Source of the DNA: Nitrospirota bacterium
GTDB lineage: Bacteria; Nitrospirota; Thermodesulfovibrionia; SZUA-242
Length of the DNA stretch: 64,000 nt
Direction: 5' to 3'
Assembly (NCBI GenBank): GCA_027021335.1
Contig: JALUUO010000005.1
Coordinates: forward strand, 1-64,000
Part shown: in pieces, positions 49,083-49,298 of the stretch
Position numbering within the stretch: position 1 is the first letter of the stretch
Layout: the number at the start of each line of letters is the position of its first letter
The notes under the pieces: generated by a model
What the model was told of the DNA's origin: nothing
Database searches by the model: none
The model's input: the letters and a program-made list of their open reading frames with translations, nothing else
Translations under genes and position numbers: made by a program

Positions 49083-49298
49083 TCAAACACCTCAACTGCC
49101 TCCGTAACCGGTGGTCACTTTATCCCCCTCAACAATAACCGGGACCCGCCTGACACCACCTGAATATTTCAGCATTTCTTCTAGATTTGCGTCATCCTCT
49201 TTAACATTAATATACTTTGCATTGTCCCCATAGGCTGACCTAGCCCTTTCAGTATGAGGTCAACCGGGTTTACCGAAAATAATAACCTTTTCCGCCAT
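49083..49298 (-). CDS. Glutaredoxin-like Uxx-star-type selenoprotein with two in-frame UGA (Sec) codons
   Basis: MAEKVIIFGKPG[U]PHTERARSAYGDNAKYINVKEDDANLEEMLKYSGGVRRVPVIVEGDKVTTGYGGS[U]GV*; strong RBS aaggaggtg; UGAs at 49262-49260 and 49094-49092; final stop at 49085-49083; downstream hairpins. Confidence 0.85.
49226..49259 (-). promoter_or_regulatory. SECIS-like hairpin 1 (for internal UGA)
   Basis: CCTCATA/TATGGGG lower stem plus GGCT-AGGTC-AGCC apical stem-loop immediately after the UGA. Confidence 0.7.

What the first reader, a model, noticed from the sequence alone, without database searches (positions are those of the whole stretch)
49083..49298. ORF-track-invisible double-selenocysteine glutaredoxin-like gene (Uxx-star type)
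The ORF list has nothing between tilS (ends 49002) and the metalloprotease (49382), yet the minus strand has a strong RBS (aaggaggtg), an ATG at 49298, and a clean glutaredoxin-like reading frame if UGA is read as Sec: MAEKVIIFGKPG-U-PHTERARSAYGDNAKYINVKEDDANLEEMLKYSGGVRRVPVIVEGDKVTTGYGGS-U-GV-stop. The first UGA sits at the redox-active position of a glutaredoxin-type betaalpha motif (normally CxxC/CPxC). The second gives U-x-x-stop, the motif for which I recall the 'Uxx-star' glutaredoxin-like (seleno)protein families are named; that recollection needs confirming. Two Sec in 71 residues is unusual, and standard gene callers will miss or truncate it.
Basis: partly seen in the sequence, partly recalled or inferred. 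Interest (0 to 1): 0.9.

Follow-up and report, generated by a model that had tools for sequence, protein, structure and literature searches.

The report
Double-selenocysteine glutaredoxin-like gene (UXX-star family)
A 71-residue redox-type protein hidden from standard gene callers because two of its codons are UGA, read here as the rare amino acid selenocysteine; it is real and well supported, but it belongs to a protein family that is already catalogued.

Summary
The minus strand at 49298-49083 carries an RBS, an ATG and a 71-residue frame with in-frame UGA at codons 13 and 69, and a stop UGA at codon 72. It matches NCBIfam NF041114 "UXX-star selenoprotein family 1" at 108.5 bits (cut-off 72), a family that a 2026 review lists with two Sec. 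The genome has selA, selB, selC (anticodon TCA) and a selD that itself carries Sec. In 80 related loci plus the window, codon 13 is UGA in 73 (Cys otherwise); codon 69 is UGA in 79, TGG in one, off the contig in one. Both UGAs have their own SECIS hairpin: the first covaries at third codon positions; the second lies wholly beyond the stop codon and is kept by compensatory changes in 61 of 67 homologues. Fold: shortened glutaredoxin, UPHT active site, no resolving Cys. Most likely Sec13 and Sec69 act as a redox pair (inferred); metal(loid) binding is the main rival, and a longer-tailed subgroup sits in arsenic operons. New member of a known family. Least documented point: a UGA-Sec and a UGA stop 9 nt apart, told apart by one post-stop SECIS.

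The parts
49083..49298 (-). UXX-star family 1 selenoprotein gene, 71 codons (ATG at 49298) plus stop UGA (49085-49083)
   Evidence: NF041114.2 108.5 bits against cut-off 72; the only copy in the genome, read with 2 TGA inside
49306..49314 (-). Shine-Dalgarno sequence aaggaggtg; GGAGG ends 9 nt before the ATG
   Evidence: sequence
49260..49262 (-). Sec13 UGA codon (UPHT, active-site position of the glutaredoxin fold)
   Evidence: UGA in 73 of 81 loci, Cys codon in the other 8
49233..49245 (-). apical stem-loop of SECIS 1: GGCU-AGGUC-AGCC; loop begins 18 nt after UGA13; wider fold spans 49223-49262
   Evidence: -11.6 kcal/mol for 49262-49220; covariation
49092..49094 (-). Sec69 UGA codon (GGS-U-GV-stop)
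   Evidence: UGA in 79 loci, TGG in L053, off the contig in L100
49083..49085 (-). stop codon UGA, third codon after the Sec69 UGA (9 nt on)
   Evidence: homologues have TGA, TAA or TAG here (34, 24, 9)
49065..49079 (-). SECIS 2 stem-loop CCGAUA-GUU-UAUCGG, wholly 3' of the stop codon; loop begins 18 nt after UGA69
   Evidence: compensatory changes in homologues

Best explanation
The locus is a complete member of UXX-star selenoprotein family 1. UGA13 and UGA69 are decoded as selenocysteine by SelB and tRNA-Sec, each directed by its own SECIS hairpin whose apical loop starts 18 nt downstream; UGA72, only 9 nt from the loop of the second hairpin, is read as stop. The product is a shortened glutaredoxin fold. 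Sec13 sits where glutaredoxins have their attacking Cys, with Thr16 in place of the resolving Cys. Sec69 sits three residues from the C-terminus, just after a Gly-Gly that resembles the one before the glutathione-binding acidic residues of glutaredoxins. Most likely Sec13 attacks a substrate and the mobile C-terminal Sec69 resolves it through an intramolecular diselenide. Identity, machinery and SECIS pairing are shown here by sequence comparison; Sec insertion itself and the chemistry are inferred. Confidence: identity and double recoding about 0.95; the chemical mechanism about 0.5.
For: NF041114.2 E 1.4e-31, 108.5 bits, and NF041212 76.3 bits, both over cut-off. selA, selB 345.9 bits, tRNA-SeC anticodon tca, selD with Sec in CGU. 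Codon 13: UGA 73, TGC 5, TGT 3; codon 69: UGA in 79. SECIS 1: third-position pairs 20-26 (100% paired, shuffled 80%) and 17-29 (90%, shuffled 69%) are the two strongest of all third-third pairs; 3.80 of 4 pairs against 2.90 in synonymous shuffles. SECIS 2: 61 of 67 short-tailed homologues have a hairpin of 5 bp or more with its loop 16-20 nt after UGA, against 14% in shuffles, with five pair types at each stem position. Both fit the bacterial SECIS model quoted in PMC13188914: G in the first two loop positions, spacing 16-37 nt. Fold: AlphaFold2 pLDDT 82.8, best PDB matches are glutaredoxins. 30 of 100 relatives carry a homologue, nearly all with 2 TGA.
Against: Single-sequence folds of the hairpins are not better than shuffles (z between 0.1 and -1.3); support rests on comparison. 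SECIS 2 folds at -6.8 (38 nt) or -8.2 kcal/mol (61 nt), around the review's -7.5 limit. No Rfam family reached its gathering score in the region. One homologue, L053, has TGG at position 69. No peptide or 75Se data. The Sec13-Sec69 distance was not measured.
Confidence: 0.85

Rival explanations
1. Same selenoprotein, but the two Sec bind a soft metal or metalloid (Hg, As, Cu) for detoxification or trafficking instead of doing redox exchange chemistry.
For: PMC13188914 suggests metal ligation for UXX-star Sec residues. A longer-tailed subgroup that also passes the NF041114 cut-off lies beside ACR3 arsenite efflux, ArsC-like and ArsR-type genes.
Against: Most short-tailed members show no recurrent metal-resistance neighbours; here the neighbours are a secreted-protease-like gene and tilS. 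Sec13 sits at the catalytic position of a redox fold, and association with arsenate reductase would suit a reductant too.
Confidence: 0.35
2. The UGA codons are ordinary stops: pseudogene, sequencing error or chance frame.
For: Standard gene calling sees no gene.
Against: The same UGAs recur in dozens of independent genomes over several phyla with the protein otherwise conserved, and the SECIS stems covary.
Confidence: 0.01
3. The organism uses a code in which UGA is a sense codon (table 4 or 25).
For: Metagenome gene callers rendered the homologues with W at these sites.
Against: Neighbouring genes of these loci end with TGA in 143 of 321 cases; the Sec machinery is complete; SECIS hairpins are present.
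Confidence: 0.01
4. UGA72 is a third Sec and the protein continues LPIVYRYKSGLS to a TAG.
For: 34 of 67 short-tailed homologues have TGA there; some show a similar downstream peptide (LPIV, LPVV).
Against: 33 of 67 have TAA or TAG there; the downstream similarity is the SECIS hairpin, equally present after TAA, TAG and TGA; the loop is only 9 nt from UGA72, outside the 16-37 nt range.
Confidence: 0.03

Closest known systems
UXX-star selenoprotein family 1 (NCBIfam NF041114, 'Distant Grx-like protein 1')
   Same: Full-length match over cut-off, UxxT motif, two Sec, C-terminal U-x-x-stop
   Different: Nothing of note: an ordinary member
UXX-star families 2 and 3 (NF041211, NF047338) and the HUGP/GUXX-star fusion (NF045501)
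   Same: Related sequence and fold, sub-threshold matches
   Different: Scores 41-48 bits against cut-offs of 97-325
Glutaredoxin (Pfam PF00462; Grx3, NrdH; Sec-containing bacterial Grx)
   Same: Fold and position of the attacking residue
   Different: No resolving Cys (U-P-H-T), no C-terminal helix in the model, Sec at the C-terminus; scores below the Grx and NrdH model cut-offs

Membership tests
UXX-star selenoprotein family 1 (NF041114) | HMM score over the curated cut-off (72 bits) | tested here: met
   108.5 bits, residues 5-71 on model 1-70 of 70
UXX-star selenoprotein family 1 (NF041114) | UxxT active site | tested here: met
   U13-P-H-T16; homologues have UGA or Cys at 13
UXX-star selenoprotein family 1 (NF041114) | Sec followed by two residues and stop at the C-terminus | tested here: met
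   U69-G-V-stop; same in most homologues
UXX-star selenoprotein family 1 (NF041114) | Host has the Sec decoding trait (selA, selB, selC, selD) | tested here: met
Bacterial SECIS model (as in PMC13188914) | Loop 3-9 nt with G in first two positions, stem of 4 bp or more, 16-37 nt from UGA | tested here: met
   AGGUC and GUU loops, each 18 nt after its UGA
Bacterial SECIS model (as in PMC13188914) | Free energy at or below -7.5 kcal/mol | tested here: inconclusive
   SECIS 1 -11.6; SECIS 2 -6.8 (38 nt) or -8.2 (61 nt)
Selenoprotein (experimental) | Selenium present in the expressed product | not testable with these tools
   needs 75Se labelling or mass spectrometry
Glutaredoxin 3 (TIGR02181) | HMM score over the curated cut-off (90 bits) | tested here: not met
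   24.7 bits; shares the Grx fold but is not a member of this equivalog

The most novel reading that the evidence does not exclude
One post-stop hairpin sorts two UGA codons 9 nt apart into Sec and stop purely by distance, in about half the family, with no sign that UGA is avoided as the terminator (TGA 34 of 67 against 143 of 321 in neighbouring genes). This would be a natural, repeated experiment on SECIS spacing, and a bacterial SECIS whose stem-loop lies in the 3' UTR, whereas the review PMC13188914 describes bacterial SECIS as lying within coding regions.
Probability: 0.75. Interest if true: 0.45.

Novelty: new member of a known kind. Interest (0 to 1): 0.33.

Why it matters
It is a clean case of a conserved gene invisible to standard calling. 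The family's function is, as far as I could find, untested. The comparative set gives direct material for two questions: how close a UGA stop may lie to a UGA-Sec, and whether the tail Sec resolves the active-site Sec or binds metalloids.

Tried and rejected
Rfam search of the region: nothing at gathering score. Single-sequence folding: not better than shuffles. A first try at selC used the wrong Rfam accession (RF00022, GcvB), then RF01852. Co-occurrence with selB among relatives is uninformative, because 92 of 100 have selB over cut-off. G080 and G081 have the gene with no selA or full-length selB found, but they have selC and a Sec-type selD, so an assembly gap is the likely reason. The Haft and Tolstoy 2025 paper is not held, so its own discussion of UXX-star was not read. 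The 2008 GOS paper (PMC2398784) cited for the family does not use the name 'distant Grx' in its main text. A scan of the window for further UGA-bridged frames gave only unconvincing candidates. A UGA-reassigned code, a pseudogene and a third Sec at codon 72 were considered and rejected (see rivals).

Full report
What is there. On the minus strand, between a secreted-protease-like gene (49382-50995) and tilS (47557-49002), the sequence reads aaggaggtg-tgttgtc-ATG and then MAEKVIIFGKPG-U-PHTERARSAYGDNAKYINVKEDDANLEEMLKYSGGVRRVPVIVEGDKVTTGYGGS-U-GV and a UGA stop. No standard ORF of 60 aa or more lies there. tilS is confirmed by Pfam; the upstream gene has only a sub-threshold PPC match, with an HEFGH motif visible in its sequence.

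Family. The product (scored with C or U at the two sites, same result) matches NF041114.2, UXX-star selenoprotein family 1, at 108.5 bits against a cut-off of 72, and the broader NF041212 at 76.3 against 66; families 2, 3 and the HUGP fusion stay below their cut-offs. Pfam gives Glutaredoxin at 34.7 bits. The 2026 review PMC13188914 lists NF041114 as 'Distant Grx-like protein 1', motif UxxT, two Sec.

Machinery. In the window's own genome (2.70 Mb, 121 contigs, 96% complete) selA scores 538 bits, selB 346 bits over the cut-off, tRNA-Sec 67.7 bits with ARAGORN anticodon tca, and selD 362 bits with one in-frame UGA in a CGU context. The gene itself occurs once.

Homologues. A genome scan with a pattern drawn from the middle of the protein, hence blind to the two Sec sites, gave 80 loci from records titled Nitrospirae, Deltaproteobacteria, Syntrophales-type bacteria, Spirochaetes, Armatimonadetes and others. 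With the window, codon 13 is UGA in 73 and a Cys codon in 8 (one of them, L095, lies in a stretch with N). Codon 69 is UGA in 79; L053 has TGG and L100 ends before it. The tail Sec is thus kept more strictly than the active-site Sec. Among 100 relatives of the window's genome (itself counted), 30 have a homologue, nearly all with two UGA; two of the one-UGA cases read in full have Cys13 and Sec69 (L103, L112).

SECIS 1. The loop AGGUC starts 18 nt after UGA13, closed by GGCU/AGCC. In 71 distinct homologues the two stem pairs that join third codon positions (offsets 20-26 and 17-29 from the U of UGA) are the two strongest covarying of all third-third pairs; 3.80 of 4 pairs form against 2.90 (sd 0.08) in synonymous shuffles. 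Protein conservation alone does not explain this. In L049 the residues change from A-R-S-A to A-L-D-A while the stem is kept.

SECIS 2. The hairpin CCGAUA-GUU-UAUCGG starts 3 nt after the stop codon, its loop 18 nt after UGA69. In the 67 homologues with a stop at the third codon after the Sec, 61 have a hairpin of 5 bp or more with the loop 16-20 nt after UGA, against 14% in shuffles; every stem position shows five pair types, and a G lies in every loop. The hairpin is equally good after TGA, TAA and TAG stops (means 6.9, 7.0, 6.7 bp). Both hairpins meet the loop and spacing rules quoted in the review. The review describes bacterial SECIS as lying within coding regions; this one lies past the stop.

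Stop. UGA72 is 9 nt from the SECIS 2 loop, outside the quoted 16-37 nt, so termination there is expected. TGA is used as stop in 34 of 67 homologues, against 143 of 321 neighbouring genes: no avoidance. The apparent conserved read-through peptide in metagenome proteins is the hairpin itself.

Structure and mechanism. AlphaFold2 on 33 relatives gives a glutaredoxin-like fold without the last helix (pLDDT 82.8); the best PDB matches are glutaredoxins, with NrdH-type proteins among them. Sec13 is at the attacking position and Thr16 replaces the resolving Cys. From general knowledge of glutaredoxins (not computed here), the GG before Sec69 resembles the Gly-Gly of the glutathione-binding motif. 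I infer that Sec69 replaces the missing resolving residue. The rival is metal or metalloid binding. A subgroup with about 12 extra residues before the tail Sec (L055, L056, L060, L061, L064, L068, L073-L075, L077, L079, L080, L082, L096) lies largely in arsenic-type operons: ACR3 over the cut-off in L079, L064, L056 and L055, an ArsC-like protein in L061 (below its cut-off), an ArsR/SmtB regulator in L073. ACR3 also lies within 3 kb of two short-tailed members (L057, L097), but most short-tailed members have no recurrent partner.

Limits. No expression data. The main recent paper on the family (Haft and Tolstoy 2025) was not available. The SECIS tests use related sequences, so the counts are not independent events, though many pair types per position need many changes.

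Noticed in passing
L055, L056, L060, L061, L064, L068, L073-L075, L077, L079, L080, L082, L096: A long-tailed subgroup of the family (SLRGGIPLFGGTU[PAS]V and similar) in which about 12 residues precede the tail Sec and the frame often runs on past it; it sits largely in arsenic operons with ACR3, ArsR and ArsC-type genes. The NF041114 match stops before this tail in the two checked (L079, L060).
   Followed up: partly
L053 5-214: A homologue with TGG (Trp) instead of UGA at the tail Sec, still with UGA13; mutation or base-calling change.
   Followed up: no
G080:C7:40994-41191 (L111) and G081: Genomes with the two-UGA gene, tRNA-Sec and Sec-type selD but no selA or full-length selB found; probably an assembly gap.
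   Followed up: partly
L117 235-1278 (G000:C17): selD of the window's genome is itself a selenoprotein (KTCGUAAK).
   Followed up: yes
L114 (G061:C7:3000-4200): A second, apparently frame-broken copy of the gene in a relative, with UGA13 kept.
   Followed up: no
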